Program-made: the position numbers and the translations under genes
Assembly: GCA_011033025.1 (NCBI GenBank)
Contig: WFMF01000022.1
Location: forward strand, 868,001-932,000
DNA from: Beroe forskalii
Lineage: Eukaryota > Ctenophora > Nuda > Beroida > Beroidae
Reading direction: 5' to 3'
Length of the DNA stretch: 64,000 bases
Part shown: positions 1,309-57,330 of the stretch, in pieces
Layout of the letters: each line of letters starts with the position of its first letter
Numbering within the stretch: the stretch's first letter is position 1
The notes under the pieces: model-generated
What the model saw: the letters and a program-made list of their open reading frames with translations, nothing else
Told to the model about the DNA's origin: nothing
Databases searched by the model: none

Positions 1309-4300
1309 CAAAGCGAGGATATACTGCACCAGCAACAGGCCAGGGGAGGCCCCATTCAATCATAACGAGATCGGAGGGGCATTCTACAGATCTGGGACAC
1401 TCTACGCTGTCTTCAGTGGCCAAAGGTAAGCCTACTTGCTTACAAACATGGTACTGTTTATAGTTTATACTCTAACTCTTCAATGCATAATAAAACTGTG
1501 CTGCATACATAACAAGGCTTATAAGTAGCATGTACTTAATGATAAATCATATAAAATTGATATTATCATTTGAAATAACCGACAGGAATTTGAAAACCGG
1601 AAGTATCCTCTGCTCATTTTCAATCAAAGACATTGATTCTGTGTTCGAGGGTCCCTATATCACTTACCAAGACAATGTGAAAGAGTGGGTTACCACGCCC
1701 AACCAACCATTCTCAGTAAGTTTAGTTACCACGCCCAACTATTCTCAGTAAGTATTGAATGGGTTACCACGCCCAACCAATCTTAGAAACTTGTAAGTAT
1801 TGCGCATCAGCGCATTGTTTTATTGAATAAATAGGTTCCATCCTCAACGTATCTTTTTCAATCATATATTTCTAACATTTCTAGCATTTATAATTCTGAA
1901 ATTAATATCCGTCTTAATCATTAAGATTTAAAATTAATAAACTAAGCCCGGTTGTTAGCCACAGTATGCCTGGTGCGATTTATAGTTCCAAGGAGACAGG
2001 GAGTGAGGAAAGCCGGTGGAAATGTACATTATGTGTGTACACTGGAAATGTATGATCTACAGGCTGCTACTACAACTTGTTGGTATATTAGACCACTACT
2101 TGCCTCACGGTGCGTGATTGTCCTTATGAAAAGCAATCACTTCTCAATAGAATACTTGAATTAGGTCCCAGTGGGGCTACTTTACCACCCTGAAACTTAG
2201 TACATGCCTCCTTCCCATTGACAAGTATCATCTGTTTGTTTTCAGACATCCCAGTGTTCTTTTATTCAATTTACTGATTACCGCATGTTCAAGGCCGATG
2301 AAACAATTTGTATTAAAATCAGATAGGTAGATCAACAAACAGTTCAGTTCGCTTCTATTACTACTACACCCTTATCAAATTGCGCCACAATGAAAGATCC
2401 TAAATACTTTACTGCGGTCTGCAAATTTTCAAAATATTTGGAAAGCTTTTCATTCCATGAGAGTATAAGTGAGCCATTAGTCAACTTCACTTACATTTTC
2501 TATTTTCAATATTAGCTCTGAGGATTCATACTCGAAGCCTGGAGAGGTTGGATAAGGTGGGTCATTTGAAAAGTGTTCCTGTCTGACTGTTAGAGTGGTG
2601 AAGTTAGAGTGGTGAAGTTAGAGTGGTGAAGTTAGAGTGGTGAAGTTTTATTAGATCGAGAATGTGACATTTGGCGAATATTCCTGATCATCAAAACTTA
2701 CATTTGACGATTGTTGTTTTAGCTTTATAGATCACACACTAAAAGATTGCTAAGTAAATACCTTAATATGTTGACTTTCATTTATCAGAGTGACCAATGA
2801 ATGAAGATGAAAACAGTTAACAAAATGCACGTTCTGGGCCGTATCCAATATTCTAAATTCTAATAGTAATATAATACTGAATATTTTACTGTCTTTACAG
2901 TGCTCCAACAAGAAATCTATCAACGTGGCTGCGTACCAAACAATGATGGAACGGGCAATCTACCAAAACGAACCTCTGTACTACACACAGACCGAAACCA
3001 GGTATTGTATTGTCCTGTCCTGTTCTGCCATGCCTTATTCGGTCCGGTCCTTTTTTGTCCTGTTTCGTCCTTTTCTGCCCTCTCCTGCCCTGTACTATAA
3101 GGGCCGGATTACACAACCGTTTAAGGTCGACCTTTAGCCCTAGGTGCTCCTTAAAACGGCCCAAACTGCAGTTTAAGGTCCACCTTAAAATTCCGTATTA
3201 CCCAATGTGCTCCTTTGAGGCGATTTTAAGGTGCTCCTAAGCGAGTTAGGTCGACCTTAAAATTCCCGAAAAATCGGTATTACCCAACCTACCTCGTCCT
3301 TAAGTTGGTCCTTTAGCTGCTCCTTAAACGGCGAATTTTTAAGGTACCTCCAGCTCGTCCTTAAAACCAGTAGGTGCTCCTTAAACCACACGTTATATGT
3401 GATAATAATTTGGAGCTACATCGTTGTCACAAGAGAAGAGATAAAATTCAAGGATTCAATTTGCTGATAGCTTATTTTGCAGTCCGGCTGTGATCGGTTC
3501 AAAAAGCAAAAACAGCCAAAATCATTAAACAATTCACCTCCATAATGTGGTGTGTTTTATTGGGATTCGTAAACGGTAAAATGAAAGACCGATAATAAGC
3601 TCTGGAATTTGTGTACAACATTTTTATTTATATTCAAGTATTCAATCTCAATTCAGCAATTAGGGTAAACAGAGCTGGTAGTGACACCTCTCATGCTTTT
3701 GGGAACTGTGTGAGTGCCCCACCGTAGGCTTCAATCACTCAAATTGACAATAGGTCTATTATCCAGCAACTGTGTTTGATTGACTGATAAGGCATCTTTA
3801 TTATTTAACGAGCCCCATCATCATCGTTGCAAGATATTTCCTCACTAGCAGTAAAATCCGTTTCACTGGTACCGAGCACATTCAAACCCATCTATAATTT
3901 AGTTTGCTAACAGATTCAATTTGCATCCAGTTTCTAGATTTAATTTCACTTCCATATGAATTCCCTTATATGGTGGTCTCTGCCATATATGGAGCTGCTC
4001 CTTAACTGGGTTGCTCCTTTAATTTGGGTAATCCCAGAAAGTGTCAAAGGAGGAGCTGCTCCTAAGATGCTCCTTAGCGTTTGAGGACGACCTCCTCCTT
4101 TACGGTTTAGGTCGACCTTTACGAATTGGGTAATACCAATTTCGCTAAAGGAGGACCTACAGGAGGTGCTCCTTAGAGCTCCTCCTTAAACTTCGAGCCT
4201 CTTAGGTCGACCTAACACGAAAATTGTGTAATCCGGCCCTTAGTGTACTCTATGGTATTATATGGTATGGTATGTTGTTGTGAAAATATGGGATCAGGGA

Positions 4301-16300: not shown

Positions 16301-16731
16301 TCTCGGGAGTGGATATGGCGAGCACGCTAGCTGAGGAAGAAGCGCCGCCAGCTTACGACGACACGCCGGGCGGCGCAGGCGCCAACGCAGCGCTGTCGCC
16401 CCTCTCGCCCACCGCCCGCTACACGCCCTCTCACTTCTCCGACCTGTACTCCTCCCACTACACGCCCCTTAACACTGACTACGCAGTCATTACCGCCCCC
16501 ATCCCTCCCAGACAATACAGCATGGACCTCAGAGCAGGCGCTCACAACGCCTTTGCTCACAATGCCACCGATAGAGTGGCACCAGCTGATAGAGTGGCAC
16601 CGGCTGACAGGGTGGCACCAGCGGACAGGGTGGCACCGGCTGAAAGAGCCGCCACGTCGCAGCAAAATGCCATAATCCGCGCCGGCCCTTTCAGTCCTGC
16701 ATCGGTATCAGTTCACCAACATAATGTGTGA
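1309..16731 (+). CDS. Transmembrane semaphorin (sema C-part, PSI, Ig, TM, cytoplasmic tail), 5' end outside window
   Basis: Exons I can support, with matching phases: 1309-1425, 1586-1715, 2901-3001, 4351-4421, 11456-11663, 12171-12305, then 15000-15357, 15536-15693, 15890-16049 and 16286-16731 (stop). Exon 1 reads KARIYCTSNRPGEAPF..GTLYAVFSGQ and exon 2 GSILCSFSIKDIDSVFEG, the classic sema-domain stretch (KARL.C, LYAVF, S.VC.F...DI..VF). Exon 5 ends the last propeller blade and exon 6 is a PSI domain (CSECLDLFYPHCSWC). Exon 15000 holds the end of one Ig fold (DSGGYICTLNN) and one full I-set domain (CEAGGTPPPTLEWF...DAGSYWC). The next exon has a TM helix (MIVAIVVSAIICFAIGLIV) followed by basic residues. 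The tail carries PPLPSR, PPAYDD (WW-type) and PIPPRQY motifs. Known role of the family: cell-surface guidance and adhesion ligands, often acting through plexins. Exon 6 cannot join 15000 directly (a stop codon forms), so an exon is missing; 14374 to about 14433 is a weak candidate. The N-terminal sema part lies before the window. Confidence 0.85.
1686..1795 (+). repeat. Three tandem copies of the semaphorin exon 2 donor region
   Basis: The end of exon 2 plus its donor (GTTACCACGCCCAAC...TTCTCA|GTAAGT) is followed directly by a second copy that again ends TTCTCAGTAAGT (about 1726-1755) and a third, decayed copy (about 1762-1795, ...AATCTTAG). The first donor is chosen because it leaves phase 0, as needed for exon 3. 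Reading through to the second donor meets an in-frame TAA at 1749-1751. Confidence 0.75.
2585..2648. repeat. Short tandem repeat, 14-bp unit
   Basis: About four near-perfect copies of GTTAGAGTGGTGAA in the intron before semaphorin exon 3. Confidence 0.8.
3098..4242. mobile_element. Non-autonomous TIR element, 1.15 kb, in a semaphorin intron
   Basis: Terminal inverted repeats TAAGGGCCGGATTACACAA at 3098-3116 and 4224-4242 match base for base. Subterminal regions (about 3117-3390 and 3985-4215) are rich in the palindrome AGGTCGACCT and the motif GTGCTCCTT in both orientations, giving further inverted symmetry. The centre has no credible ORF. Target duplication is not resolved: flanks are TGTACTA on the left and GTGTACT on the right. 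This looks like a MITE-type derivative of a cut-and-paste transposon; the superfamily is not assigned. Confidence 0.7.
5877..6200. repeat. MITE-like repeat, copy 2
   Basis: Shares with 277-773 the inverted repeat beginning GATTAACAAACGAATGGG, the internal CACGAGGCGTCAGCCGAG hairpin, the stretch around CACTCGGGTCTGACGACCCT, and the end ATATATCGATAATTATCACAC...GGGAGGGT. It is shorter than copy 1 through internal loss. It sits in semaphorin intron 4. Confidence 0.75.
6200..9400. other. Intronic sequence without supported genes; GT-rich microsatellite at about 6740-7040
   Basis: Part of semaphorin intron 4. A 40-bp unit (CTCAGTGTCTTACGGTCCCC...) is duplicated at about 6527-6620. A degenerate GTGTGT/GTGTAA microsatellite runs from about 6740 to 7040; the ORFs over it on the - strand are low-complexity artefacts. 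From 7.1 to 9.4 kb I see AT-rich single-copy DNA and no exon with family resemblance. Confidence 0.5.
9421..10440. promoter_or_regulatory. Two clusters of CCAAT boxes and CACGTG E-boxes
   Basis: Cluster 1 has inverted CCAAT (ATTGG) at 9426, 9467, 9509 and 9550 with CACGTG at 9443 and 9526. Cluster 2 has CACGTG at 10131 and 10423 with CCAAT at 10147, 10349 and 10390. The CCAAT boxes point one way in the first cluster and the other way in the second, as in NF-Y/bHLH promoters. They lie inside semaphorin intron 4, so they could be an internal promoter, an enhancer or part of a repeat; no transcript start can be seen. Confidence 0.3.
13090..13735. repeat. Mirrored minisatellite, unit about 18-20 bp (CGTTACGACACAGTAACG)
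   Basis: From about 13090 to 13440 the unit reads GTTACGACACAGTAACG; from about 13500 to 13735 the reverse complement (TTACTGTGTCGTAACGG) is repeated. The two halves therefore form a long imperfect hairpin centred near 13470, nested in the larger inverted repeat. Confidence 0.75.
13738..14312. repeat. GC-rich minisatellite, unit about 19-20 bp (ACTCCCGTAGGACTCC)
   Basis: About 28 degenerate copies of ACTCCCGTAGGACTCCCAGG-type units. Open frames on both strands here (Arg/Thr/Pro/Gly repeats) are by-products of the repeat. Confidence 0.8.
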
Positions 16732-18611: not shown

Positions 18612-18821
18612 TACCTTAGGAGGTGTATTCATAAAGGTTGTAATTTGGGGATTTTTCGGAAAAATCCCCATATTTTTACCCACCATGACTGTTTAAAATG
18701 ACGTCGTTATCATATGTTAACTAGAGGAATGACTTGAGAAAGATCCCCAAATTACAACCTACCAAAATTGTAAACCAAAATTTTATTCCATTTCCACATA
18801 TAAAATACACCTCCTAAGGTA
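18612..18821. mobile_element. 210-bp MITE flanked by TA
   Basis: Terminal repeats CCTTAGGAGGTGTATT at the left and its complement at the right, each next to a TA, as expected for the Tc1/mariner target. A second inverted pair (GTTGTAATTTGGGGAT and complement) lies inside. The centre is non-coding. Confidence 0.75.
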
Positions 18822-24276: not shown

Positions 24277-24691
24277 GTTCATCTAAGAAATTAAGTTCAT
24301 CAATGTATTTATCCAGTGTAGGGAATCTAAAGATCCATCTGGTCCGGACATACCTTTTTTGCTCATTGAAGGATTAATTCTTCAATTGTTGATATATACT
24401 TAAAAGCTACCTAGATAAATTGCATGATCAATTTCTTGTTGGGGATTACTCCCATATTATGTAATCAATTATTCAGCACTTCCCCATAATATAATCAAGT
24501 TTGTAACAGTAGTTGTATTTGTTATATATTGATTGACTTGCAACACAATCATTTGAGAACTTCTTTCCTCCTAAGTTTATTTAATTTGTGAACCATCTGA
24601 TATTACTAAATCATTGCAATCATATTAAAACATCTCCTATTTCAGTTCATATCTTGTCACATATTAATGTTGGCTTGAAGCAGTCAGCTCA

Positions 24692-42600: not shown

Positions 42601-45600
42601 AATGGCATTAAAGGCAACAATGGAGGTAAAGGTAGAGATCAAGTGTGGACATTAGAACCTAGCCCTAGTCCAGGATGTTACTATTTTGCAAGTGAGAAGT
42701 ACCCTAGCTGGAGAATGGCTGATTCTAATCAAAAACTTGTGGCATGGAATACAAAATTAAATGACCAAAAATTTAAGATGGTTGACTCAGGGAATAATGA
42801 TGGGTATTTCTACCTCTACAACTGTGTTCACACTAGCGACAGAGTGGCAAATCCGACCAGGAAACAGAGTGACATCATCATCTGGAGTGGCAACAAGAAC
42901 AACGACCAACTCTGGAGATTGGTGCCAAGGTTTAAAGTCAATCTATACACAGATACAATTACCACACGTGATTACAGGAATTATCGCTTTGGAACGGTGG
43001 TCCGGGTTCCTGTGAACTATGGACTGACTAGAGCTTCCTCTGCAAGCATTCCTAACATGAGCAATTATAAAAAAGCTATAAAGAACTCACTGCGTGAAGC
43101 TCTATGGCAGTTTGATGTTAATCTTCTCAACACAATGGATTTCACTAGCGAGATGGATGCAGCATTGGGAAGAAGCAACTGGAAGAAAACAGGGACTGTG
43201 GAAATGGTAGTGCCAGCTGGACAAAGATGCAAATTAATGCAGCACCGGGCGTATATAAAGGAGAATTTTGGAGGGACAGGTTCGATCACATTACGGAGTA
43301 ATGCAAAGGTCTTATGTAGCAAAACTAATTCATATAGCGATGATGCAGATTTCATTATAACACACACTCAATAAACTGCATTTCATGAGAATGTGTTGAA
43401 GAAAATTATTGAGCTATTGCTTTGTCTGTAATCAATTATAGATCTCATCATTTGTGTTGAAAAATTAAAATTCAATTGATCTTGTGGGAGAAGGGCATGA
43501 AGGGAGATATTCAATAATTTCTGATAACTTAAAAATAATATTAAATAAATAAATAACAAAAATTTATTCATCGCTCTTAAGCTAAAATAGGTCTATACTT
43601 AAAGACGCAATGTCAGGAAAGAAAACTGAATCACTCAGCATAAATTAGGTTCAACATATTTCACTTGAAAATCTTAGCCAAATGCAATCTTAAAATAATA
43701 GGTCTTTAATACTTTCTTAAAATTATCAACATTACTGCATGATCTTATATCATAGCTTCATAGGGATGATTGTTCCATATCTTAGGTGCAGTAAAACTAA
43801 ATGGTATGTAGATACCATAATGAAACTGTGTTATCAAGGGGAGGGGGGTTAAGGCAAACTATGGCAAATGCTTCCAATTTTTGGAGTTTGCCAAAAAAGT
43901 GTTTGGCAAAGTTTGCCTTACCCCCTCCCCTATCAAGACTAAATTACTAGCTTAAAATCATAGTCATATGGCAGCATGGAAGTTTCCACGTGCACCCTTC
44001 CATGTAACGTGAACGAACCCTAAGGTCAGGGATTTACCGACCTAACGTCCACCCAGGTTTTCCGTCACTGACCTCGCGTCCACCGACCTCGTGTCCTAAA
44101 GATAATGCACCGATGATTTCAGACTTATCAATTTTTCGTAGTAGAACCATACTTTTCGTAAAATGGCTACTTCAAGACAAATGACAATAAAATGATCAAA
44201 GCCAATTTGAAAATTTATTTCATGTTAAAAGATATAAAACGGATGCAAAACGTAATATAAACGCTATAGTAATTAATGAACTTGCACGTGTTAGTTTGGG
44301 GGGGGGGGTAAGGCAAACTTTGGCAAACGCTTCCACTTTTTTTGGAGTTTGCCAAAAAAAGTGTTTGCCAAAGTTTGCCATAGTTTGCCAAAGTTTGCCA
44401 AAATTTGCCAAAGTTTGCCAAAAATACCCCAAAAATTTTGTTATTTCTGATTTCTTGTCCACTGTGCATGCAGGACGTGTGCATAATGGTTTTTGAGGGA
44501 GCTGAATCGATTTCCAATGCTTAGTTTTCATTCATACCTTCCCCTTCGAGGCTTTACTGGTGTCCACGCCTGGACCTTCCCTCTGCAAGCACCCCATTGT
44601 TTATAAAAAGGTATCGTAAAGGACCTTTTGGTTCAAGAAGAGAGATCTTTATAATTCCCAGGCATGGATCTATGGATCTACTATCTACTACTGGTTCATC
44701 AGATAACGTGTCTTCGGCAAAATGGTACCACAGGAATATGACCAACATTAGCTTCCATTAGCATCCATGGAGGCTGAGTGGAGGCTAATTTCAAGAATAA
44801 ACCTCCTTGGAGGCTAACGGTAGCATTAGGCTAATTTTCGAAAAATAGTCTCCACTGTGGTGGCTAATTAACCTCCATTAGCCTCCACTCAGCCTCAATG
44901 GAGGCTAAAAGTTTGGTTTCACCTCCACTAGCATCCACTGAAGTCTGAAGAATTAGCTTCAACGGAAAATAAAATATAACATTTTCGTTGAGGGCAAAGT
45001 TTTAGTTTATGGAGGCTAGTTAAGGCTATTTGGAGGCTGAGTGGAGCCTAAATCAATACGCCTCCATTATTAAAACTGGTCAAATACGTGCACTAAAAAT
45101 CAATTTATAGATTCAAACTTTCAGACAGCTCCAACTATCCTCCACTCATACTCCACTAGGCTCCACTCAGCATCTACTAGGAATCACTCAGCCTCCACTA
45201 GTCTCCGTTCAACCTCCACTAGGCTCCATCAGCCTCCACTAGGCTCCACTCAGCCTCCACTAGGCTCCATTCAGCATCCACTAGGCACCAAGTAGCCTCC
45301 ACTAGGCACCACTCAGCCTCCACTAGACTCCACTCAGCCTCCACTAGTCTCCAAACAGCCTCCACTAGGCTCCACTTGGCCTCCAATAGGCTCCATTCAG
45401 ACTCCGCTAGGCACCAAGTTGCCTCCACTAGGCCCCACTCAGCCTCCGCTAGGCTTCACGCAGCCTCCACTAGGCTCCACTCAGCCTCCACTAGTCTCCA
45501 CTCAGCCTCCACTAGGGCCTAAGCTGAGTGGAGCCTAGTGACTAGGCTCCACTCAGCCTCCATTAGTCTCCAATAACCTCTACTAGGCTCCACACAGCCT

Positions 45601-48600
45601 CCACTAGGCTCCACTTGGCCTCCACTAGGCTCCACTTGACCTTCACTAGGCTCCACTCAGCCTCCACTAGTCTCCAAACAGCCTCCACTAGGCTCCACGA
45701 AATTCATGAATTATATTGCTAAACGCGGGAAAAGACGGAGCATGTGGCACAAAGAATATATGAGGCAAATTCTAGAACTCTGCCAAGCGTTTAGGGCGTG
45801 ATTTCACGTACCAATGTGTGTAACAATAATGATCGAACCTCCACAATAAATTTTGATTTTCAAAAAATATTGTTCAATCGCCTCCACTGGTACGGGTACG
45901 TACTTTTCAAATGGTCCGTACTAGTACGTACTTGTGGCCCGGTATCATACGTACTTCTCATCTTAGCTCCACACAGCCTCCACTAGGCTCCACTTGGCCT
46001 CCACTAGGCTCCACTTGACCTTCACTAGGCCCCACTCAGCCTCCACTAGTCTCCATTAACCTCTACTAGTCTCCACTCAGCCTCCACTAGTCCACTAGAC
46101 TCCACTCAGCCTCCACTAGTCTCCAAACAGCCTCCACTAGGCTCCACTATGCTCCACTTGGCCTCCAATAGGCTTCACTCAGCCTCCACTAGGCCCCACT
46201 CAGCCCCCAAAAGGCTCCGCGTGGCCTCCACTAGGCACCACTCAGCCTCCACTGGGATCAACTCCGCCTCCACTAGGCTCCATCCAGACTCTGTTAGGCA
46301 CCAAGTAGCCTCCACTAGGCTCCATTCAGCGTCACTAGGCTCCACTTGGCCGCCACTAGTCTCCATTCAGCATCCACTAGGCACCAAGTAGCCTCCACTA
46401 GGCACCGCTCAGCCTCCACTAGGCTCGACTCGGCCTCCACCAGGCTCCATCCAGCCTCCACTTGGCTCCATTCAGCTTCACTAGGCTCCACTTGGCCGCC
46501 ACTAGTCTCCATTCAGCATCCACAAGGCTCCGCTTGGCCTCCACTAGGCACCACTCAGCCTCCACTAGGCTCAACTCCGCCTCCACTAGGCTCCATCCAG
46601 ACTCCGCTAGGCACCAAGTAGCCTCCACTAGGCTCCATTCAGCCTCCACTAGGCTCCACTTGGCCGCCACTAGTCTCCACTCAGCCTCCACTAGTCTCCA
46701 CTCAGCCTCCACTAGGGCCACTCAGGCTCCAGTGGGCCACCAGTGACCCGCCACTAGGCTCCACTCAGCCTCCACTAGTCTCCAATAACCTCTACTAGGC
46801 TCCACACAGCCTCCACTAGGCTCCACTTGGCCTCCACTAGTCTCCATTAACCTCCACTAGGCTCCACTCGGTCTCCACTAGGCTTCATCCAGCCTCCACT
46901 AGGCTTGACTCAGCCTCCACTAGGCACCACACAGCCTCCACTAGGCGTCACACAGCCTCCAATAGGCGTCACACAGCCTCCACTAGGCTCCACTCAGCCA
47001 CCACTAGGCCCCATTAAGCCTTCACTAGGCAATTAGCATTCTCTGGTGACCAGTGGTTACGGTGGGGCCTTACCATTGATTTTAGGCTGCTTATGTAGTG
47101 TAGATGCTTTGGTTAAGGGCTTCATAGAACTGTTTGATACGTTGATCGGACTACTTAGTACTTAAATGCATAAATCTTAAAGTAAGAGGTAATGAAGTAT
47201 CGTATTTGTAACTGTAGCCTACTACTCTATTCAATGTGGATGTGGTCTCTGCTACAGCTTCTGGGTAACGTCAAAATGTGAAACAGACCTTGGGAATCGA
47301 TTCAGCATCCTTGAAAAGCATATTATGGGTACCTAGAGTGTTGCCAAAGTGCTCAAAAAGGTGTTTAATTTTTGGCAAACTTTGGCAAACTTTGGCAAAT
47401 GCTTCCACTTTTTTTGGAGTTTGCCAAATAAAGTGTTTGCCAAAGTTTGCCATAGTTTGCCAAAGTTTGCCTTACCTCCCCCCCTAGTTTGCACACGTTA
47501 CCATAATAATAGCGGACGGTATGGTTTATTTTATCCTTGATTTTTCGAACATTTCAGACGTTTCACAAAAAAGGTCGGATGGACTTTTAAACCAGGTCTT
47601 GGTCCATTACGGACAATTACGAAAAATTACGGACTTTCGGCTGCATTTGTGGCAGTTGTTTGGACACGCTTCCGAACTACCTCTCTGTTTGATATAGTAG
47701 GCCCGGTGGGTCTGCTCATACACAGCTACGCGCCACCTTGTTCTCAGCTGTCGACCAATATTATTTAATATTCAATTTAAATTTTCAAAATGTATAACGC
47801 AGCATTCATCAAGTTTTACAAATGGAATTCTCAGAACACTAATCATAATCTGCACGTGCACATTTGTAGAACCCTAGTAACGGCGCATCTGAGGCTCTTA
47901 TTGGCAAGGTCAAATTATTTAAAGAGACTGGAAAAACGCAAAATTTCACTTTACAATTGAGATGATTGGTGAATCCCACTAGCTCAGCCATACCTGCCAT
48001 TTTTGGCGGTCATTAACAAAACCTGTTGCAAAGGGTTGAAAAGTTGCATCCAAACAGAATTTGGCCACTCATACTTTCATGACCATGAGCACAATTGTGT
48101 TTCATGGTTCCAGGGCAATCATGAATTGCATGTTGATATTTGATAATAAGGTTAGAAAGTTACGTTTAAAAAGTAATTGTATGAGTATTGCATCACTCTG
48201 ATGCCCTGAACAGTGATCATTCAGTTATATATTTCAGATTGAGAAGGACTTGCAAGATGAACTTCTCCTTGATTTCTACACCAAACAGTGGTCAGATTTC
48301 CGCTTCAGCAGCAAAGTCCTCAATGGCATCTGTCAGTATTTGAATCGTCACTGGGTGAAAAGGAAGCGAGAAGAGGGAAATAAGAAGATATTTGAGATTT
48401 GCGACGTGAGTTCCTTTTTTAGGCTTTTAGAGCGTTAACTTCTGATTTTCAGATTCCCTACGTCCTAAATTCTACCCCAATATAAGGCAGTTTCCCCAAT
48501 CAAACCTTTTTGTTTTACAATAAGTCATTAAAGAAGGGCTGAGAGCAGCCGTGATTCTGAGGGCCGGATTAGAACCAATACAACGTATTTGATTTTCACC

Positions 48601-51600
48601 GATTACTACATCGTATGACATGCGATAAAGTGCCGTATCTAAATAAGCATCCTTAAGAGATGATCTTGCTCGAAAAATTTTAAACACGATGGTGATATTG
48701 AAAATAAAACCGGTTTGGAGTGTAATGGTACATTCAGTGATATTATCAGACATCACATATCATGCGATATGTGATGACTGATTCGAATCCGATTTATTTT
48801 CCTAGCTCTGATATCAAACGAATTTCATTTCAGCTAGCCTTGGTTCAGTGGAAAGAACACATGCTTACTCCCCTCTCAAATCAGGTTATGATAATGTGTG
48901 CCTAAATAGTAAATGTGTATTGTGCAACGAAAAAGTGCATGAATGTGATGTTTAGACACTAGATAGTAGACATGTATCAGTAATTTTCTATAATAGATAG
49001 TCGGTGTTTCTTGTTGTAGTATGGGTATAATAATTGTGTGCTATTTGATTGATTAAATGAAGCCCGCATAATGATGTAAAAAGTGGGCGATGTTGTCGTG
49101 AATTATTTTTCCCTTGATCCGTAGAGTGATTACCGAATACTCAAGATCGCGTAATTTAATAAATGAAGATACAAGAGTTGGATGATATTCTACCCTGAAA
49201 TCATATTGCAACGAGAATCACTCTCGTGCTGAATGTTTGATACTTTGGGACTAGGCCTGCGTGTAGGCTGTATAACTATTCCAGTTACCGGGTTACACAC
49301 TTACACGTAAACAGTCAGATTGAAAACTCGCACACTGTTTACAATGCGCGCTCTATTGCAGTTTAATTGCGCCATTGCATTATCGCACGTGCACACTGCA
49401 CCAGCAACTTGGTTTGTGTGCATGAGTAGGTGTATGCTTATCTCTGCGCATGTTTATTTTTGCACGCGCGCACAAATTCAACGTGTAAAATTTTGCACGG
49501 ATACACTTTTTTCTTACTATGCACTTAAATACGGACACCCTTAATGCGCCTGCACCTTGTGACACATACATACTTTTGTACGGGCAGCATTTAATTAATA
49601 ATTTGGTTGTGCTATTATACGATCATGCTTGGTAACCTGGAAACTAGTTGTAGGTATTAGTTACGTTCGATTATCACATACTTAATTTATAACTTATTAT
49701 GTATACGTTAGAAATGAAGAAAACTTTTCCTGGTTTTCATAAATTTTCTTTTGAAAAGTTGAGCTTACAATCATATAGGTAGCTAAAAGTTTCAACGCAG
49801 TAGCCATAATAATTTATATACATACATAATTAATATATTGTGGATACGTTGGAAATGAAGAAAACTTTTCCTGGTTTTGAAAAATCAGCGCAGTAGCCAA
49901 ATGAGCCGGGGAAAGATTCCTTCCTGTAGCCGTTGATGCCTATCACCATGATTTTAGTGGTTCACTAGTTTAGGCGGAGTTTAGACAGATATGTGAAATT
50001 GTAAATTTTCTATTCCATGCTTTTTCAATTTCCATGGGGTTAATTTGAGAATAGTAAAACTCACTCCACACAGAGATTTGAAAATACATTGCAACTGAAT
50101 CGCCGAACTGATAATCCGTTTTGTCAAACTGACCGTTTTCTGGTTAAGATGCTATGTTTCCATTGATCTCCTATTCCACGTTTGTTCTAAGTTGTATCTC
50201 TAAAACCTCCATTTATGACCATCAGTGTGTCACGTCGTATGACGTAACGGTTCTGAATCACATGCTCCGTAAAACTCCAAACCTGTTTGTTTGGGACAGA
50301 AAACCAGCATCTACTGCTCAACTAGCAGACATTCACCAAACTGCTGATATTGTGTGCGCGTATCCAATAACCCGCGCGCGCGCCGCACGTACTTAATCAT
50401 ATTCATTATTCAATATTCATTAACTCGCGTCGATCACTGAGCTGCATGTGCGTCAGTTTCGGTAATCATCGTCGTAGTGACCTTCTATCGGGTCAATTTT
50501 GAGCTGCAAATTCCATGGAGCATGCTTTCATAGTGTTCTGGACTGACTCTATCAGCTGTATTGATGTGAACGTTCCCGAAAACTCCGAATCAAGGTCATG
50601 TTTGCAGTTTGGCCTTGATTTGGTTTGTTTCGCCCTTCAACTCGAAGCTGATGCCTTAAACCAACCTTGTACTTTGAAGCTAATCTACCCGAAACCGGGA
50701 AAATCAGCTCCAAGATAAGCGAAACAGTCCAAACCGCTTTTTTGAGTTTATTTGGCGATTTGCTGATTTGCCTCGTTTTGAGGAGGTTTTAGAGAGGGTA
50801 TGAGATGGATTCGGCTTGATTTAGCTTGTTCCTCCTTTTAAATTTACTTCATTATCAAAATGCTTTGTGCCCTTCACTTGTCGGGTCATTTGAACCCAAA
50901 TCATCCAGTTTCTGAAAATAACTGTCTAAAGCAGCCTGTTTCTATATTTTCGACCTTCACATTGGCAACACAATCACATGACTTATCAAATGTATTCTAT
51001 TTTATGTGCTGTTCCATCGCATTGATAATCTCATCGCAGGTTACCAGAGCTATCCTGAAACTTATCGAAAAGGAAAGGAATGGTGAAGTGGTGAACACAG
51101 GTCTCATTAAAACTGCTATAGAGAGCTTCGTTCAGTTGGGTTTGAAGGGCAGTGCCCCCGAACACAGACTCGAGGTCTACTCGAAGAACTTTGCGACGCA
51201 CTTCCTGGCCGAGACGAACAGTTACTACACTGCAGAGAGCATGTTGTTCTTGCAGGAGAACCCGGTCAGTTATCCAAGGTCACATTTTCCTGGTGATAAA
51301 CACATTCTCTTAATTGTGATGGCTTATGTTGTTATGTACATTGTACATAACAACATAAGCCATCACAATTAAGAGATAGAAGAATGTGTACAAGGTACCT
51401 GACTACTATACTAATTCTCATATTCAAACATTCAAGGTACCTGTAACCTGAGTGCAATACTAACTCCCATAAACAAGGTACCTGAGTACCATACTAAATC
51501 AGCATATTCAAGGTACCTGAGTACCGTACTAACGTTTCTTTTCAAGGTACCTGAGTACCATACTAACTCTCATATTCAAGTACCTGAGTACCATACTAAC

Positions 51601-54600
51601 TCTCATATTCAAGTACCTGAGTACCATACTTACGCTCCTATTGAAGGTATCTGAGTACCATAAGACCAGACTAATTCTGATATTCCAGGTACCCGAGAAC
51701 CAAACTAACTCTTATATCCAAGGTACCTGAGTACCTGAAGAAGGCAGAGAAGCGTCTCCAAGAGGAGCAGGAGAGGTGTGCGAAGTACCTGCACGAGAGC
51801 ACCAAGTCAGACTTGGAACACAAGTGTGTGCAGGTCCTGGTGGAGCACCACCTTCACATCTTCTACGCCGAGTTCCAGAATCTGCTAGACAACGACAAGA
51901 ATGAAGGTGCCTTGTCGTGCGTGGTGTAGCGTGGTCTGAAACGCTTGGTCGGTTTGACCGTCTGTGGGTTTGTAGCTCTGGTTTTGTCCGTTTGTGGGTT
52001 TGTCGCACTGGTTTGTCCGTCTGTGGGTTTGTCGCACTGGTTTGCCTGCCTGTATGGTGACTCATTATATTCTTGCTGCGTTGCAGATTTCACTAATCCT
52101 ACCGATAACCCCAGACATTGGTCGCCTGTACGACTTGGTTGTCAGACTTCCTGCCGGCTTGCAGCATCTCAAGCAGCTATTTGAGGATCACGTGCTGAAC
52201 GTGGGACTGAAAGCGGTGCAGAGCTGCCAAGAATCACGTGACAACGTGGTTAGTAGACACCAGACACCTTAATGTCTCTTACCAGGGACACCAGACACCA
52301 TAATGTCTCTTACCAGGGACACCAGGCACCTTAATGTCTCTTACCAGGGACACCAGGCACCTTAATGTCTCTTACCAGGGACACCAGGCACCTTAATGTC
52401 TCTTACCAGGGACACCTGGCATCTTAATGTCTTTTACCAGGGACACCAGGCATCTTAATGTCTTTTATCAATGTCTCTTACCGAGGACACCTGGCACCTT
52501 AATGTCTCTTACCAGGGACACCAGGCACCTTAATGTCTCTTACCAGGGACACCAGGCACCTTAATGTCTCTTACCAGGGACACCTGGCATCTTAATGTCT
52601 CTTACCAGGGACACCAGGTACCTTAATGTCTCTTACCAGGGACACCTGGCACCTTAATGTCTCTTACCAGGGACACCAGGCACCTTAATGTCTTTTATTA
52701 ATGTCTCTTACCAGGGACACCTGGCACCTTAATGTCTCTTACCAGGGAGCCAGGGACACCAGTCACCTTAATGTCTTTTATCAATGTCTCTTACCAGGGA
52801 CACCTGGCACCTTTGGTGAGTGTTCTCTAATGAAACCATGATGTGACTGCCTATGGTACCTGCTCCTTCTCGTGATAACAACCCTTATCATCGCCTCTTT
52901 CTGTGTCACGCTGCAACCACACTCTGTTGTCTCGTAACACCATGAAACCACGTTTTATACCTTCCTGTCCTCTCAAAAGTGACAACCTGAACCAATGCTG
53001 CACTTTTTCGCTCTGTTTTACTGCTATGCCTATAATTAAAATTTATTAAACTCCTCTTACTATGTTGTCCCTGTTACAGGACCCCAAGACGTTCGTTCAA
53101 GCTCTCCTTGACGTGTACCGGAAGTACCAGGACTTGGTTCACAACTACTTCCAGAAGAACCCCATCTTCGTGCAGGCGTTGGACAAGGCCTGCACCGGCT
53201 TCATGAACAAGAACAGCGTGTCGGAGTGGTCCAATAACACCGGCAAGTCACCGGAGTTACTCGCCAAGTACTGCAATCTCCTTCTAAAGAAGAGGTACTT
53301 GGTGGTACAGCCACACGCCAGGGCTATAATCATCGTGTTATTGTGACGAAATCAACGAATTTTGGCGCACTTCAGACACGATTTTCATATTCACGACTTA
53401 TGAAAGCTTTTTAAGTTGATCTTGATCATTGATGACGCCGTTTGATTTCGACCACAACAATAACATACAGCTCCTAGTACACTAACTCATGTATTTCAGT
53501 TCCCGCATTAACCCCGTACACTTACTCATGTATTTCAGTTCCCGCATTAGCCCCGTACACTAACTCATGTATTTCAGTTCCCGCATTAACCACGTACACT
53601 TACTCATGTATTTCAGTTCCCGCATTAGCCCCGTACACTAACTCATGTATTTCAGTTCCCGCATTAACCACGTACACTAACTCTTGTATTTCAGTTCCCG
53701 CATTAACCCCGTACACTAACTCATGTATTTCAGTTCCCGCATTAACCCCGTACACTAACTCATGTTTTTCAGTTCCCGCATTAACCCCGTACACTAACTT
53801 ATGTATTTCAGTTCCCGCATTAACCCCGTACACTAACTCATGTATTTCAGTTCCCACATTAACCCCGTACACTAACTCAAGTATTTCAGTTCCCACATTA
53901 ACCCCGTACACTAACTCTTGTATTTCAGTTCCCGCATTAACCCCGTACACTAACTCATGTATTTCAGTTCCCGCATTAACCCCGTACACTAACTTATGTA
54001 TTTCAGTTCCCGCTTTAACCCCGTACACTAACTCATGTATTTCAGTTCCCGCTTTAACCCCGTACACTAACTCATGTATTTCAGTTCCCGCATTAACCCC
54101 GTACACTAACTCATGTATTTCAGTTCCCGCTTTAACCCCGTACACTAACTCATGTATTTCAGTTCCCACATTAACCCCGTACACTTACTCATGTATTTCA
54201 GTTCCCACATTAACCCCGTACACTAACTCATGTATTTCAGTTCCCGCATTCACCCCGTACACTAACTCTTGTATTTCAGTTCCCGCATTAACCCCGTACA
54301 CTAACTCACGTATTTCAGTTCCCGCATTAACCCCGTACACTAACTCATGTATTTCAGTTCCCACATTAACCCCGTACACTTACTCATGTATTTCAGTTCC
54401 CACATTAACCCCGTACACTAACTCATGTATTTCAGTTCCCGCTTTAACCCCGTACACTAACTCATGTATTTCAGTTCCCGCATTAACCCCGTACACTAAC
54501 TCATGTATTTCAGTTCCCGCATTAACCCTGTACACTAACTCACGTATTTCAGTTCCCGCATTAACCCTGTACACTAACTCTTGTATTTCAGTTCCCGCAT

Positions 54601-56724
54601 TAACCCTGTACACTAACTCTTGTTTTCAGTTCCTGCTTTAACCCCGTACACTAACTCATGTATTTCAGTTCCCGCATTAACCCCGTACACTTACTCATGT
54701 ATTTCAGTTCCCGCATTAGCCCCGTACACTAACTCATGTATTTCAGTTCCCGCATTAACCACGTACACTAACTCTTGTATTTCAGTTCCCGCATTAACCC
54801 CGTACACTAACTCATGTATTTCAGTTCCCGCATTAACCCCGTACACTAACTCATGTTTTTCAGTTCCCGCATTAACCCCGTACACTAACTCATGTATTTC
54901 AGTTCCCGCATTAACCCCGTACACTAACTCATGTTTTTCAGTTCCCGCATTAACCCCGTACACTAACTCATGTTTTTCAGTTCCCGCATTAACCCCGTAC
55001 ACTAACTTATGTATTTCAGTTCCCGCATTAACCCCGTACACTAACTCATGTATTTCAGTTCCCACATTAACCCCGTACACTAACTCAAGTATTTCAGTTC
55101 CCACATTAACCCCGTACACTAACTCTTGTATTTCAGTTCCCGCATTAACCCCGTACACTAACTCATGTATTTCAGTTCCCGCATTAACCCCGTACACTAA
55201 CTTATGTATTTCAGTTCCCGCTTTAACCCCGTACACTAACTCATGTATTTCAGTTCCCGCATTAACCCCGTACACTAACTCATGTATTTCAGTTCCCGCA
55301 TTAACCCCGTACACTAACTCATGTATTTCAGTTCCCGCATTAACCCCGTACACTAACTTATGTATTTCAGTTCCCGCTTTAACCCCGTACACTAACTCAT
55401 GTATTTCAGTTCCCGCTTTAACCCCGTACACTAACTCATGTATTTCAGTTCCCGCATTAACCCCGTACACTAACTCATGTATTTCAGTTCCCGCTTTAAC
55501 CCCGTACACTAACTCATGTATTTCAGTTCCCACATTAACCCCGTACACTTACTCATGTATTTCAGTTCCCGCATTAACCCCGTACACTAACTCATGTATT
55601 TCAGTTCCCACATTAACCCTGTACACTAACTCTTGTATTTCAGTTCCCGCATTCACCCCGTACACTAACTCTTGTATTTCAGTTCCCGCATTAACCCCGT
55701 ACACTAACTCTTGTATTTCAGTTCCCGCATTAACCCTGTACACTAACTCTTGTATTTCAGTTCCCGCATTAACCCTGTACACTAACTCTTGTTTTCAGTT
55801 CCCGCTTTAACCCCGTACACTAACTCATGTATTTCAGTTCCCGCATTAACCCCGTACACTAACTCATGTATTTCAGTTCCCGCATTAACCCCGTACACTA
55901 ACTCATGTATTTCAGTTCCCACATTAACCCCGTACACTTACTCATGTATTTCAGTTCCCGCATTAACCCCGTACACTAACTCATGTATTTCAGTTCCCGC
56001 ATTAACCCCGTACACTAACTCATGTATTTCAGTTCCCGCATTAACCCCGTACACTAACTCATGTATTTCAGTTCCCGTATTAACCCCGTACACTAACTCA
56101 TGTATTTCAGTTCCCGTATTAACCCCGTACACTTACTCATGTATTTCAGTTCCGCATTAACCCCGTACACTAACTCATGTATTTCAGTTCCCGCATTAAC
56201 CCCGAAGAGGAGGAACTGGAGGGAGTTCTCAATAACGTCATGTTGATATTCAAGTACATCACCGAGAAGGATGTTTTCCAGAAGTTTTATAGGAATCTCC
56301 TCGCCAATCGACTTGTCAACGACACCTCTGTGTCGCACGACTTGGAGGGCAGCATGATCTCCAAACTCAAGGTATATACTATATACTATAGATCTCTTGT
56401 CTCTTATTAAGTGACCAAAACTGAAGTTATATGATGGATTTCTTGTCTCTAATGTGATCAAAACTCAAGGTATATCATGGATCACTCGTCTCTAATGTGA
56501 TCAAACTAAAGGTAAATGATGGTTCATTTGTCTCTTAAATGATCAAAACTCAAGGTATACGATTGATCACTTGTCTCTTAAGTGATCGTAATGTAACTTT
56601 CAGCAAGAGTGTGGATTCGAGTACACTAGCAAGCTGCAAAAGATGTATACAGACACGCACACAAGCAGAGACCTCAACGACAGATTCCAAGAGTATTGCT
56701 CCGATAATTCCCCTAGCGACAACA
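36641..56724 (+). CDS. CUL1: Cullin-1, N-terminal 539 residues in eleven exons (3' end outside window)
   Basis: Scaffold of SCF ubiquitin ligases; the N-terminal cullin repeats bind SKP1/F-box adaptors. Exons: 36641-36736, 37096-37252, 37524-37606, 48238-48405, 48834-48884, 51040-51264, 51723-51906, 52115-52248, 53080-53294, 56188-56371, 56604-56724; all phases agree and all introns are GT-AG. Matches to CUL1 run in order: [191 protein letters not shown]. The C-terminal half, which recruits RBX1 and carries the neddylation lysine, is not found before 64000. The start ATG fits the usual short N-terminus. Intron 3 is 10.6 kb and hosts another gene; introns 6, 9, 10 and 11 (and probably 8) hold splice-site-bearing minisatellites. 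Confidence 0.9.
38626..39228. mobile_element. Foldback element with 130-bp inverted repeats, nested
   Basis: Arms start ATATGGATAGCCAAAAACAA and run about 130 bp (through CCGCAGCCACTCCAG, ATATTGATATGATT and CGCAGCCCGTCCGTG) to TGTGCTTTGGTTAC; left and right arms are about 97% identical by eye. The 330-bp loop has no ORF. Confidence 0.8.
39425..40290. repeat. Tandem array, unit about 144 bp, six copies
   Basis: Units contain AATTGGCCAATTAACTAATT, AACCGGTACTTAAATTAAAC, TTTCGGCTTAAGTTAGTGA and GACGCTATCATTTTTACTTT. The CCGGTACTTA landmark recurs every 140-146 bp from about 39438 to 40155. The array is AT-rich and shows no coding signature. Confidence 0.85.
40724..40860. repeat. Cluster of four GC-rich hairpins, three with CCCTTCGGG loops
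   Basis: Hairpin 1 at 40724-40761 (GGCCAGCAGTCCCG stem), hairpin 2 at 40768-40791 (GCCTCGGCCC stem), hairpin 3 at 40789-40813 (GGCATCTGCCC stem), each closing on TTCG, then a T run and a fourth stem (GGGCGCT...AGCGCCC, about 40837-40854). The surroundings are AT-rich. UUCG loops are exceptionally stable in RNA. Confidence 0.7.
41172..41732. mobile_element. Foldback MITE with AAACAAGCCGAA-type subrepeats
   Basis: The ends GCGTTGATACTAAAAGCA (41172) and complement (ends 41732) form inverted repeats of about 34 bp with one mismatch; the whole 560 bp is rich in CGAAACAAGC on the left and GCTTGTTTCG on the right. The 174-codon ORF through it is an artefact. Similar words occur near 50590-50840. 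Confidence 0.75.
42469..43374 (+). CDS. Secreted ricin-B-like beta-trefoil lectin with a C-terminal domain that may be aerolysin-like
   Basis: Intronless, 301 residues. The start at 42469 is chosen because residues 1-16 form a clean signal peptide ([16 protein letters not shown]); the frame is open 55 codons further upstream but that part has no signal or similarity. Residues 17-153 make three trefoil-like repeats with QxW-type endings DQVWTLEP (57-64), DQKFKMVD (99-106) and DQLWRLVP (146-153). Residues 154-301 form a different, strand-rich domain containing [15 protein letters not shown] (243-257); this arrangement recalls lectin-plus-pore-forming proteins, but that is inference and no catalytic motif is seen. 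If so it would be a defence or venom-type protein. It lies in CUL1 intron 3 on the same strand, between repeats. AATAAA motifs follow at about 43543. Confidence 0.65.
   Translation: MLFILLTVLLIGEAASYKFIANNQFLFYNKYHSNSRLSMKDNKSNGIKGNNGGKGRDQVWTLEPSPSPGCYYFASEKYPSWRMADSNQKLVAWNTKLNDQKFKMVDSGNNDGYFYLYNCVHTSDRVANPTRKQSDIIIWSGNKNNDQLWRLVPRFKVNLYTDTITTRDYRNYRFGTVVRVPVNYGLTRASSASIPNMSNYKKAIKNSLREALWQFDVNLLNTMDFTSEMDAALGRSNWKKTGTVEMVVPAGQRCKLMQHRAYIKENFGGTGSITLRSNAKVLCSKTNSYSDDADFIITHTQ
43848..43930. repeat. GGCAAAC hairpin repeat, copy 1
   Basis: Inverted repeat: a G run, AAGGCAAACT, ATGCTTCCA, then GGAGTTTGCC, AAGTTTGCCTTA and a C run. It is the short form of the elements at 44285 and 47270. Confidence 0.7.
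44285..44525. repeat. GGCAAAC hairpin repeat, copy 2
   Basis: Begins with a G run and AAGGCAAACTTTGGCAAACG, then a run of AAGTTTGCC words, and ends near a GAGCTGAATCGATT block. The same parts occur in reverse order and orientation at 47270-47490. Confidence 0.7.
44750..47040. repeat. Minisatellite field, unit about 21 bp (CACTCAGCCTCCACTAGGCTC)
   Basis: Two blocks, about 44750-45700 and 45965-47040, of the 21-bp unit with many variants; the first 300 bp carry both orientations (GGAGGCTAA and CCTCCA). About 265 bp of unrelated sequence separates the blocks. Because the unit is a multiple of three, ORFs appear on both strands and are artefacts. Confidence 0.85.
47270..47490. repeat. GGCAAAC hairpin repeat, copy 3, inverted relative to copy 2
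   Basis: GGGAATCGATTCAGCATCC, then TTTGGCAAACTTTGGCAAAC, ATGCTTCCAC, GGAGTTTGCC, AAGTTTGCC words and CTTACCTCCCCCCC. The AATCGATTCAGC word also appears in the DIRS-like terminal subunits at 33-35.8 kb. Confidence 0.65.
47491..48237. other. End of CUL1 intron 3, nothing recognised
   Basis: Single-copy-looking AT-rich DNA up to the exon 4 acceptor (TATTTCAG). Confidence 0.5.
48885..51039. other. CUL1 intron 5, minor repeats only
   Basis: A 25-bp stretch GAAATGAAGAAAACTTTTCC plus CAGTAGCC is duplicated at about 49711-49805 and 49852-49898. A CG-alternating tract lies at about 50376-50386. No coding exon or TIR element was recognised. Confidence 0.45.
51306..51376. repeat. 71-bp perfect palindrome in CUL1 intron 6
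   Basis: Two 35-bp arms (TCTCTTAATTGTGATGGC...TTATGTACA and exact complement) around a single T at 51341. Weaker pairing extends to ACACATTCT / AGAATGTGT outside. It lies 42 bases after exon 6 and just before the splice-site array. Confidence 0.9.
51391..51722 (+). repeat. Minisatellite carrying the CUL1 exon 7 acceptor (CAAG|GTACCTGAGTACC), about 9 decoy units
   Basis: Units of 33-44 bp begin at about 51391, 51435, 51473, 51510, 51543, 51578, 51612, 51643 and 51685. Each contains AAGGTACCTGAGTACC or a one- to three-base variant, followed by ATACTAACTCTCATATT. The last copy is the real junction: ATCCAAG|GTACCTGAGTACCTG, where the right-hand part is the start of exon 7 (VPEYL). Confidence 0.85.
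51930..52060. repeat. Short tandem repeat in CUL1 intron 7, unit about 28 bp
   Basis: Three to four copies of TCTGTGGGTTTGTCGCACTGG/TTTGTCCG. Confidence 0.75.
52252..52815 (+). repeat. Minisatellite abutting the CUL1 exon 8 donor, unit 31 bp, about 18 copies
   Basis: The unit is GTCTCTTACCAGGGACACC + AGGCACCTTAAT. The array starts within seven bases of the donor (GTG|GTTAGTAGACACCAGACACC), whose intron part aligns with the unit. Each unit also holds CTCTTACCAG|GGACACC, which resembles the true acceptor of exon 9 (CCTGTTACAG|GACCCC). Confidence 0.8.
53478..56187 (+). repeat. Minisatellite carrying the CUL1 exon 10 acceptor, unit 39 bp, about 69 copies
   Basis: The unit is GTACACTAACTCATGTATTTCAG + TTCCCGCATTAACCCC. 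The right part equals the first 16-17 bases of exon 10, and TGTATTTCAG is its acceptor. The array ends exactly at the genuine junction (56187|56188), where CCCCG continues as AAGAGGAGG instead of TACAC. Long + and - strand ORFs (13-residue repeats such as [13 protein letters not shown]) result from a 39-bp, stop-poor unit. Confidence 0.95.
56355..56600 (+). repeat. Minisatellite carrying the CUL1 exon 10 donor, unit about 42-46 bp, 4-5 copies
   Basis: Exon 10 ends CCAAACTCAAG|GTATATAC. Copies at about 56413, 56459, 56503 and 56544 repeat CAAAACTCAAGGTATA or variants, followed by GATCACTTGTCTCTTAAGTG. Together they fill the whole 232-bp intron 10. Confidence 0.8.
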
Positions 56725-57330
56725 GTAAGTTTCCATGACAGCAGTTTGTTGCCATGGCAACAGTAATTAACCCTGACAACAGTTTGTTACTATGACTACA
56801 GTGAGTTACCCTTACAGAAATTTGTTGCCATGACAACAGTGAGTTACCCTGACAACAGTTTGTTGCCATGACTACAGTGAGTTACCCTGACAACAGTTTG
56901 TTGCCATGACAACAGTGAGTTACCCTGACAACAGTTTGTTTCCATGACATCAGTGAGTTACCCTGATAACAGTGAGTTACCATGACAACAGTAAGTTTCC
57001 ATGACAACAGTTTGTTACCATGACAACAGTGAGTTACCCTGATAACAGTTTGTTGCCATGACAACAGTGAGTTTCCATGACAACAGTTTGTTACCATGAC
57101 AACAGTGAGTTACCCTGACAACAGTTTGTTGCCATGACAACAGTGAGTTACCCTGACAACAGTTTGTTTCCATGACATCAGTGAGTTCGCATGACACCAA
57201 TTAGTTACCATGACAACAGTGAATTACGTTTAAAATAGTGAGTTACCCTGCCAACAGTTTGTTACCATGTCATTACAGTGAGTTCGCATGACACCAGTTT
57301 GTTACCATGATAACAGTAAATAACCTTGAC
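56715..57330 (+). repeat. Minisatellite carrying the CUL1 exon 11 donor, unit about 38 bp (two 19-bp halves)
   Basis: Exon 11 ends AGCGACAACA|GTAAGTTTCCATGAC. The array repeats TGACAACAGTGAGTTACCC and TGACAACAGTTTGTTGCCA; every first half keeps ACAACA|GTGAGT, a good donor. The array decays gradually towards about 57650. Confidence 0.85.

What the first reader, a model, noticed from the sequence alone, without database searches (positions are those of the whole stretch)
1686..57330. Minisatellites repeatedly born at splice junctions in two unrelated genes
Five arrays have units that contain an exon edge and its splice site: semaphorin exon 2 donor (1.7 kb), CUL1 exon 7 acceptor (51.4 kb), exon 10 acceptor (53.5 kb), exon 10 donor (56.4 kb) and exon 11 donor (56.7 kb). 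A sixth (52.25 kb) abuts the exon 8 donor. Both donor and acceptor sides are affected and unit sequences are unrelated, so this is not one mobile repeat. It points to a genome-wide process that duplicates DNA at exon-intron boundaries and keeps it there. I recall that intron minisatellites spanning an exon-intron junction have been reported in amphioxus, but cannot verify this here.
Basis: partly seen in the sequence, partly recalled or inferred. Interest (0 to 1): 0.93.

Follow-up and report, generated by a model that had tools for sequence, protein, structure and literature searches.

The report
Splice-junction minisatellites, probable comb jelly
Short DNA repeats in this animal genome, probably a comb jelly, sometimes run across the edge of an exon and copy its splice site many times over; this matches the 'mirages' described in amphioxus and looks like a side effect of a repeat-rich genome rather than a process aimed at splice sites.

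Summary
CUL1 has four arrays whose units contain an exon edge plus its splice site: acceptors at 51723 and 56188, donors at 56371 (weak) and 56724. A semaphorin donor (1715) has three irregular copies; one array (52256) only abuts a donor. Homology to human CUL1 supports the exon edges. The amphioxus precedent exists: such arrays are called 'mirages'.

The genome is probably a ctenophore (Beroe?), not amphioxus: mitochondrial cox1 reads with code 4, atp6 matched only off the mitochondrial contig, and that contig (13,339 bp) has a published Beroe forskalii length.

The proposed junction-targeting process is not supported. Outside the window contig, 8 of 219 predicted junctions carry a local tandem copy, against 158 of 2383 intron points and 9 of 750 exon-interior points. 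Junctions lie between the two, as expected if duplication ignores exons and selection removes damaging copies. Against this, array ends pile up just inside introns, and the junction-intron difference alone is not significant (Fisher P 0.11).

Added here: mirages in a non-cephalochordate, with a controlled rate of about 3-4% of junctions. Splicing outcome is untested.

The parts
1687..1800 (+). Semaphorin exon donor (exon end 1715) with two further irregular copies containing exon end + donor-like sequence
   Evidence: read directly; Sema domain Pfam PF01403 E 2.8e-6 in the ORF that holds it; not in the TRF table
51040..51264 (+). CUL1 exon preceding the first acceptor array
51306..51376 (.). 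Perfect 35-nt inverted repeat (1-nt loop) in the CUL1 intron upstream of the 51723 acceptor array
   Evidence: intron RNA fold z -8.4
51446..51735 (+). Acceptor-side array, 34 nt; common unit = ACTAAC branch-point-like motif + AG + first 13 nt of the exon
   Evidence: degenerate copies start near 51389 by eye
51723..51906 (+). CUL1 exon [11 protein letters not shown]...; its first 13 nt are in the array
51951..52044 (+). Purely intronic 29-nt array in the CUL1 intron 51907-52114
52115..52248 (+). CUL1 exon [11 protein letters not shown]...
52256..52813 (+). 31-nt array abutting the donor at 52248 (starts 7 nt inside the intron, no exon sequence)
53080..53294 (+). CUL1 exon [10 protein letters not shown]...
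53477..56204 (+). Acceptor-side array, 39 nt x70; unit = GTACACTAACTCATGTATTTCAG + first 16 nt of the exon; about 70 near-identical 3' splice sites
   Evidence: piece of it matched only here
56188..56371 (+). CUL1 exon [12 protein letters not shown]...MISKLK, arrays on both sides
56391..56587 (+). Donor-side array, 43 nt, degenerate; copies contain AAACTCAAG|GTATA of the exon end (9 exon nt)
   Evidence: weak, under the cut
56604..56724 (+). CUL1 exon [12 protein letters not shown]...
56718..57342 (+). Donor-side array, 38 nt (two ~19-nt halves); unit contains exon end GACAACA + GTGAGT

Best explanation
These are 'mirages': minisatellites founded by a short tandem duplication that happened to straddle an exon-intron boundary, then expanded and homogenised like the genome's other minisatellites. 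Founding duplications fall without regard to exons. Those wholly inside exons are mostly removed because they damage the protein. Those straddling a boundary often survive, because the copy next to the exon is intact and the extra copies are intronic decoys. The spliceosome must then use the exon-proximal site: the last acceptor of an acceptor array, the first donor of a donor array. Shown: anatomy, exon edges by homology, unrelated units, recurrence in several genes, and a rate between intron and exon interior in the sample. Inferred: the duplication mechanism, the selection step, and exon-proximal splicing (no RNA was available).
For: Junction test outside the window contig: 8/219 junctions, 158/2383 intron points, 9/750 exon points; junction/intron 0.55 (locus bootstrap 0.24-0.78), junction vs exon Fisher P 0.034. 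An earlier version gave 6/203 vs 64/987 and 51/987. Over 2 exon sets x 2 exon cuts x 2 copy cuts, junction was below intron and above exon interior in 8 of 8 (junction vs exon P 0.0005-0.075). Array-level: 2 of 39 TRF arrays in predicted introns outside the window contig span, 1.74 expected. In the held 354 kb, 0 of 21 AGGTRAGT places have a second copy within 45 nt, against 12 of 51 for the reversed motif and 5.8% of random 8-mers. A piece of the 39-nt array matched only its own array. 11 of 13 unit lengths that I listed are not multiples of 3, so use of a decoy would shift the frame in most cases.
Against: Array ends pile up within 25 nt on the intron side: 11 observed, 3.8 expected, P 0.0018; outside the window contig 8 vs 2.8, P 0.008; exon side 6 vs 3.9 and 4 vs 2.9. 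A uniform model does not explain this. Junction vs intron is not significant by Fisher in any of the 8 settings outside the window contig (P 0.095-0.59), and intron points are not independent. Rigid placement of whole arrays gave 10 of 99 spanning vs 7.6 expected (P 0.21), 9 of 58 vs 5.3 (P 0.07), 8 of 46 vs 4.4 (P 0.07); these include the window that prompted the finding. Genome-wide, paired CAGGTGAGT motifs (485) exceed the reversed control (77) more than singles do (2375 vs 1139), but all but 6 of the listed pairs are in two giant arrays. The exon set is ab initio; after seeing arrays I moved one L011 edge, added one L011 exon and moved one semaphorin edge, which favours junction hits. The sample is one long contig plus two contig ends.
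Confidence: 0.7

Rival explanations
1. A process targets exon-intron boundaries (for example splicing- or transcription-coupled breakage) and duplicates DNA there; this is the first reader's reading.
For: Both donor and acceptor sides, several genes; pile-up of array ends within 25 nt on the intron side; raw excess of paired donor motifs.
Against: Junction points carry fewer local copies than intron points in every setting, without reaching significance by Fisher. Spanning arrays equal expectation. A hidden hot spot whose products are mostly purged cannot be excluded, because only survivors are seen.
Confidence: 0.1
2. The arrays are kept because repeated splice-site modules are useful (buffering, stronger splice-site recruitment, or ratchet-like recursive splicing at AG|GT units).
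For: The common unit carries an exact CTAAC motif, AG and exon start in 4 of 6 acceptor arrays (CUL1 x2, SLC13-like, ATPase). At 51723 several units read AG|GTACCTGAG, an acceptor joined to a donor-like GT.
Against: Rate is not above intron background. In 2 of 6 acceptor arrays (semaphorin, LRRK-like) the common unit lacks an exact CTAAC. Purging of units without a branch point would give the same pattern. No RNA.
Confidence: 0.08
3. The introns themselves were born by tandem genomic duplication of an exon segment holding AGGT.
For: Units contain exon edge plus splice site; the globin authors proposed mirages as a source of new introns.
Against: In CUL1 each spanning array explains only one end of its intron; the other end has its own site outside the array. 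Copies in the 51265-51722 intron start more than 100 nt after the donor.
Confidence: 0.04
4. Assembly or annotation artefact: collapsed or inflated repeats, or wrong exon edges.
For: No reads or cDNA available; copy numbers rest on one assembly.
Against: The joined exons align with human CUL1 through the junctions with gaps of at most three residues; units carry substitutions distributed along the array.
Confidence: 0.04

Closest known systems
Mirages of amphioxus (Adh3, globins, troponin C, PGBD5), PMC3087553 and PMC3902484 (passages seen)
   Same: Minisatellite-like tandem duplications spanning an exon-intron boundary, on donor and acceptor sides; many units carry AG/GT splice signals; reported in several unrelated genes.
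   Different: Probable ctenophore instead of cephalochordate; up to about 70 copies; normal splicing is supported by RT-PCR there, untested here; a per-junction rate with intron and exon controls is given here, which I did not see in the passages.
Human variable internal tandem repeats in genes of segmental duplications (PMC2812944, passages seen)
   Same: Minisatellite units of ~30 nt; [quoted passage not shown]
   Different: About half lie in coding sequence of recent paralogs; here at edges of conserved exons.
Intron gain by tandem genomic duplication (titles and abstract starts; Rogers model as cited in PMC3087553)
   Same: Tandem duplication of a segment with splice signals.
   Different: There the duplication makes a whole intron; here an existing intron is padded at one end.
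Dispersed 21-nt minisatellite CTCCACTCAGCCTCCACTAGG in this genome
   Same: Large tandem arrays, also present in this window (45140-47030).
   Different: Dispersed: 381 exact double units genome-wide, reversed control 0. The junction array tested was matched at one place.

Membership tests
Mirage (amphioxus-type junction minisatellite) | Tandem array whose unit spans an exon-intron boundary | tested here: met
Mirage (amphioxus-type junction minisatellite) | Both 5' and 3' boundaries can be affected; units differ between genes | tested here: met
   (by inspection)
Mirage (amphioxus-type junction minisatellite) | Unit length about 10-160 nt, as reported for Adh3 and globins | tested here: met
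   13 junction arrays listed with units 31-140 nt
Mirage (amphioxus-type junction minisatellite) | Regular splicing despite decoy sites | not testable with these tools
   no RNA data
Mirage (amphioxus-type junction minisatellite) | Copy-number instability between haplotypes or in soma | not testable with these tools
   single assembly
Mirage (amphioxus-type junction minisatellite) | Cephalochordate host (as reported so far; not a mechanism) | tested here: not met
   mt code 4 and other ctenophore features
Intron born by tandem genomic duplication | Both intron ends lie in copies of one duplicated segment | tested here: not met
   CUL1 introns with spanning arrays have one end in the array, the other outside
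Mobile or dispersed repeat (including introner-like) | Same unit at many loci | tested here: not met
   39-nt array: 30 rows, one place (the tool skips very common words). Other junction units not searched genome-wide
Junction-targeted duplication | Excess of tandem copies at junctions over intron positions | tested here: not met
   8/219 vs 158/2383; no excess in 8 of 8 settings; but see the intron-side pile-up of array ends

The most novel reading that the evidence does not exclude
In ctenophores a few percent of all splice junctions carry tandem decoy splice sites, thousands per genome, arisen independently of the amphioxus ones. Splicing there must follow a strict exon-proximal rule that ignores up to ~70 near-identical complete acceptor modules. 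Such arrays would be natural saturation tests of splice-site choice and a standing reservoir for intron sliding and gain.
Probability: 0.4. Interest if true: 0.65.

Novelty: new member of a known kind. Interest (0 to 1): 0.45.

Why it matters
If correct, mirages are not an amphioxus oddity but may appear wherever minisatellites are dense, in a lineage far from chordates. The intron and exon controls separate two ideas that single-gene reports cannot: targeting of junctions, and tolerance at junctions. The CUL1 array with about 70 near-identical branch point-acceptor modules next to one conserved exon is a ready natural test of how the spliceosome picks among identical sites by position alone.

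Tried and rejected
Counting array ends near junctions with an exon set predicted while arrays were masked gave an apparent excess of about 2-4 fold within 20 nt on both sides. I do not rely on it, because masking lets the predictor slide exon ends to array ends. The unmasked set left no significant excess on the exon side (6 vs 3.9) but kept the one on the intron side. Rigid shuffling of arrays was borderline and includes the window. The paired-donor genome search was set aside: of the listed pairs, which reach only contig C77 of 1134, all but 6 lie in two giant arrays, and the control's places are not listed. The array-level test leaves out known spanning arrays whose flanking exon is outside the stretch (transglutaminase, ATPase, the CUL1 array after 56724) or whose copies are below TRF's reach (LRRK-like, innexin), so it counts few. 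The branch-point filter idea was kept only as a remark (4 of 6 acceptor arrays). A mollusc-like first hit for myosin and an innexin hit without pannexins first suggested a protostome; the mitochondrial code overruled this. Absence of zf-C4 and of the nuclear-receptor ligand domain is weak, because no control genome rang.

Full report
WHAT IS THERE. I rebuilt part of the CUL1 gene. Eight consecutive exons between 48238 and 56724 join in one frame and match Cullin-1 over 424 residues, E 7e-156. A tblastn with human CUL1 recalled from memory places the same exons, earlier ones at 36.7-37.6 kb, and later ones at 69.9 and 71.3 kb beyond the window. Comparing 16 CUL1 junctions and one semaphorin point with their surroundings (cut 16) shows spanning copies at acceptor 51723 (13 exon nt, 5 copies), acceptor 56188 (16-17 exon nt, 69 copies), donor 56724 (7 exon nt, 21 copies) and the semaphorin donor (1 copy; I had set that point 2 nt early, the exon ends at 1715). 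Donor 56371 is weaker (9 exon + 6 intron nt, best score 15, under the cut). The array at 52256 only abuts its donor. The other 12 CUL1 junctions have none over the cut.

ANATOMY. At 56188 the 39-nt unit is GTACACTAACTCATGTATTTCAG followed by the first 16 exon nt; 70 copies, TRF 95% match. At 51723 the common 34-nt unit holds ACTAAC, AG and the first 13 exon nt. Donor units hold the exon end plus GTGAGT or GTATA. An upstream unit at 56188 would keep the frame but reads TAA within the unit (read from the sequence). Of 13 junction-array unit lengths that I listed are multiples of 3.

NOT ONE MOBILE REPEAT. A 117-nt piece of the 39-nt array, searched against the whole 216-Mb assembly, matched only this array (30 rows; the tool skips very common words). 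The units of the other junction arrays look unrelated but were not searched genome-wide. In contrast the 21-nt unit of the window's 45140-47030 array is dispersed: 381 exact double units, reversed control 0.

ELSEWHERE IN THE GENOME. I fetched 20 evenly spaced 10-kb stretches of contig C1, two contig ends, three neighbours of the window, and four neighbours of C1 stretches that held genes, one of them (L028) next to a stretch with a junction array (290 kb, 260 kb of it outside the window contig). Minisatellites of 10-200 nt period cover 8.9% of the 20 C1 stretches and 12.8% of the first 250 kb, which includes the window neighbours. Inspection and a simple ab initio exon finder, trained partly on homology-supported exons, found further junction-spanning copies: a transglutaminase donor (31 nt x65), an SLC13-like donor and acceptor (38 nt; 73 nt x13.5), an innexin donor, a P-type ATPase acceptor, an LRRK-like donor and acceptor, and a semaphorin acceptor 2.9 kb upstream of the window start. 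Pfam supports transglutaminase, innexin, cation-ATPase and myosin exons; the SLC13 and LRRK names are recalled from predicted peptides.

IS THERE AN EXCESS AT JUNCTIONS? I asked, for each predicted junction, whether the sequence centred on it has a copy 12-300 nt away (score >=18, >=4 on each side), and asked the same of points 40-300 nt into introns and 25-100 nt into exons. Outside the window contig: 8 of 219 junctions (3.7%; 95% interval 1.6-7.1%), 158 of 2383 intron points (6.6%), 9 of 750 exon points (1.2%). Junction/intron ratio 0.55, locus bootstrap 0.24-0.78; junction vs intron Fisher P 0.11, junction vs exon P 0.034. One of the eight (L019) is doubtful. After seeing arrays I had moved one L011 edge, added one L011 exon and moved one semaphorin edge; this favours junction hits. 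An earlier version without those changes gave 6 of 203 vs 64 of 987 and, at a higher cut, 51 of 987. With two exon sets, two exon-score cuts and two copy-score cuts (8 settings) the junction rate was below the intron rate and above the exon rate each time; the junction-intron difference alone was not significant in any (P 0.095-0.59), the junction-exon difference had P 0.0005-0.075. In the window contig: 5 of 54, 127 of 664, 2 of 176; the five include one edge at 16629 that is really a coding repeat, and omit the weak 56371 donor and the semaphorin donor, whose edge I had mis-set. At array level, 2 of 39 TRF arrays in predicted introns outside the window contig span a junction, 1.74 expected; 2 of 35 in the window contig, 2.48 expected; CUL1 2 of 6, 1.69 expected. 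That test omits spanning arrays whose next exon was not in the stretch (transglutaminase, ATPase, 56718) and copies TRF does not call (LRRK-like, innexin). In the held 354 kb, 0 of 21 AGGTRAGT places had a second copy within 45 nt, reversed motif 12 of 51, random 8-mers 5.8%.

RESULTS THAT CUT THE OTHER WAY. Array ends pile up within 25 nt on the intron side: 11 vs 3.8 expected, P 0.0018; without the window contig 8 vs 2.8, P 0.008; on the exon side 6 vs 3.9 and 4 vs 2.9. Rigid placement gave 10 of 99 arrays vs 7.6 (P 0.21), 9 of 58 vs 5.3 (P 0.07) and 8 of 46 vs 4.4 (P 0.07). Perfect donor motifs in tandem pairs are 485 genome-wide vs 77 for the reversed control, singles 2375 vs 1139, but all except 6 of the listed pairs are in two giant arrays on one contig. 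These leave room for a modest attraction to the splice-site neighbourhood inside introns; a strong hot spot spanning exon edges is not seen.

WHICH ANIMAL. COX1 lies on contig C1134, 13,339 bp. Of 7 AGA/AGG codons in its first 448 codons, 5 fall on arginines of mammalian COX1, as in code 4; the invertebrate code would read serine. Atp6 had one match, on contig C176, none on C1134. Innexins are present, 13 exon-wise matches. No zf-C4 match (no control rang). ARAGORN, with bacterial settings, found no tRNA in the 2.8 kb held. Passages of PMC6991124: ctenophore mtDNAs are thought to use code 4, lack tRNAs, atp6 and atp8, and three Beroe forskalii mtDNAs are 13,357, 13,339 and 13,338 bp. A ctenophore, probably Beroe, fits; sequence identity to Beroe was not tested. 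Hormiphora has 13% of its genome called as repeats by Tandem Repeats Finder (passage of PMC8527503).

KNOWN OR NEW. Passages of PMC3087553 and PMC3902484 describe amphioxus 'mirages': tandem duplications across exon-intron boundaries, both sides, AG/GT in many units, no interference with regular splicing, length instability. Passages of PMC2812944 report human variable repeats, some at exon-intron boundaries. Among the papers listed to me none ties such arrays to ctenophores (one search listed 15 of 233, searches listed 2 of 2 each; full text of open-licence papers only). So I file this as the mirage kind in a new phylum, with a controlled rate.

MECHANISM. Best reading: duplications fall without regard to exons; selection removes most inside exons; those across an edge survive because the exon-proximal site remains and is used. 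Position, rate and anatomy are shown; the duplication mechanism, selection and splicing choice are inferred. The evenly spaced 200 kb hold five clear cases (transglutaminase, SLC13-like x2, innexin, ATPase), three of them in one stretch (L011); scaled to 216 Mb this is a few thousand, an extrapolation from one contig.

Noticed in passing
window 51306-51376: A perfect 35-nt inverted repeat with a 1-nt loop lies in the CUL1 intron upstream of the 51723 acceptor array; the intron RNA folds far better than shuffles (z -8.4).
   Followed up: partly
window 45140-47030; L016 8343-9989: The 21-nt unit CTCCACTCAGCCTCCACTAGG occurs in both (mainly opposite strands) and as 381 exact double units genome-wide: a dispersed minisatellite family, sometimes on both strands close together.
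   Followed up: partly
window 20243-20472 and 22917-23195: Two copies of the same GGGACAAAT-type array about 2.7 kb apart, each preceded by the same 18-nt repeat (20086, 22774), suggesting a duplicated element.
   Followed up: no
window 58187-58474 (minus strand): A short cysteine-rich open frame with a hydrophobic end lies inside the 13-kb CUL1 intron on the opposite strand, possibly a nested gene; Pfam gave only a sub-threshold hit.
   Followed up: partly
window 24933-25886: Open frame with a GCFC domain (E 4e-47).
   Followed up: no
window 16573-16648: An 18-nt tandem repeat inside the predicted last semaphorin exon codes for repeated DRVAPA: a coding repeat, not a junction array.
   Followed up: partly
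G000:C77:417548-420317 and 453270-454967: Giant arrays of a ~36-nt unit containing the perfect donor motif CAGGTGAGT, on opposite strands ~33 kb apart; not known whether an exon edge lies there.
   Followed up: no
CUL1 joins 52248/53080 and 53294/56188: One extra residue relative to human CUL1 sits at or within a few residues of each of these two exon joins (alignment), one of them beside the 70-copy array.
   Followed up: no
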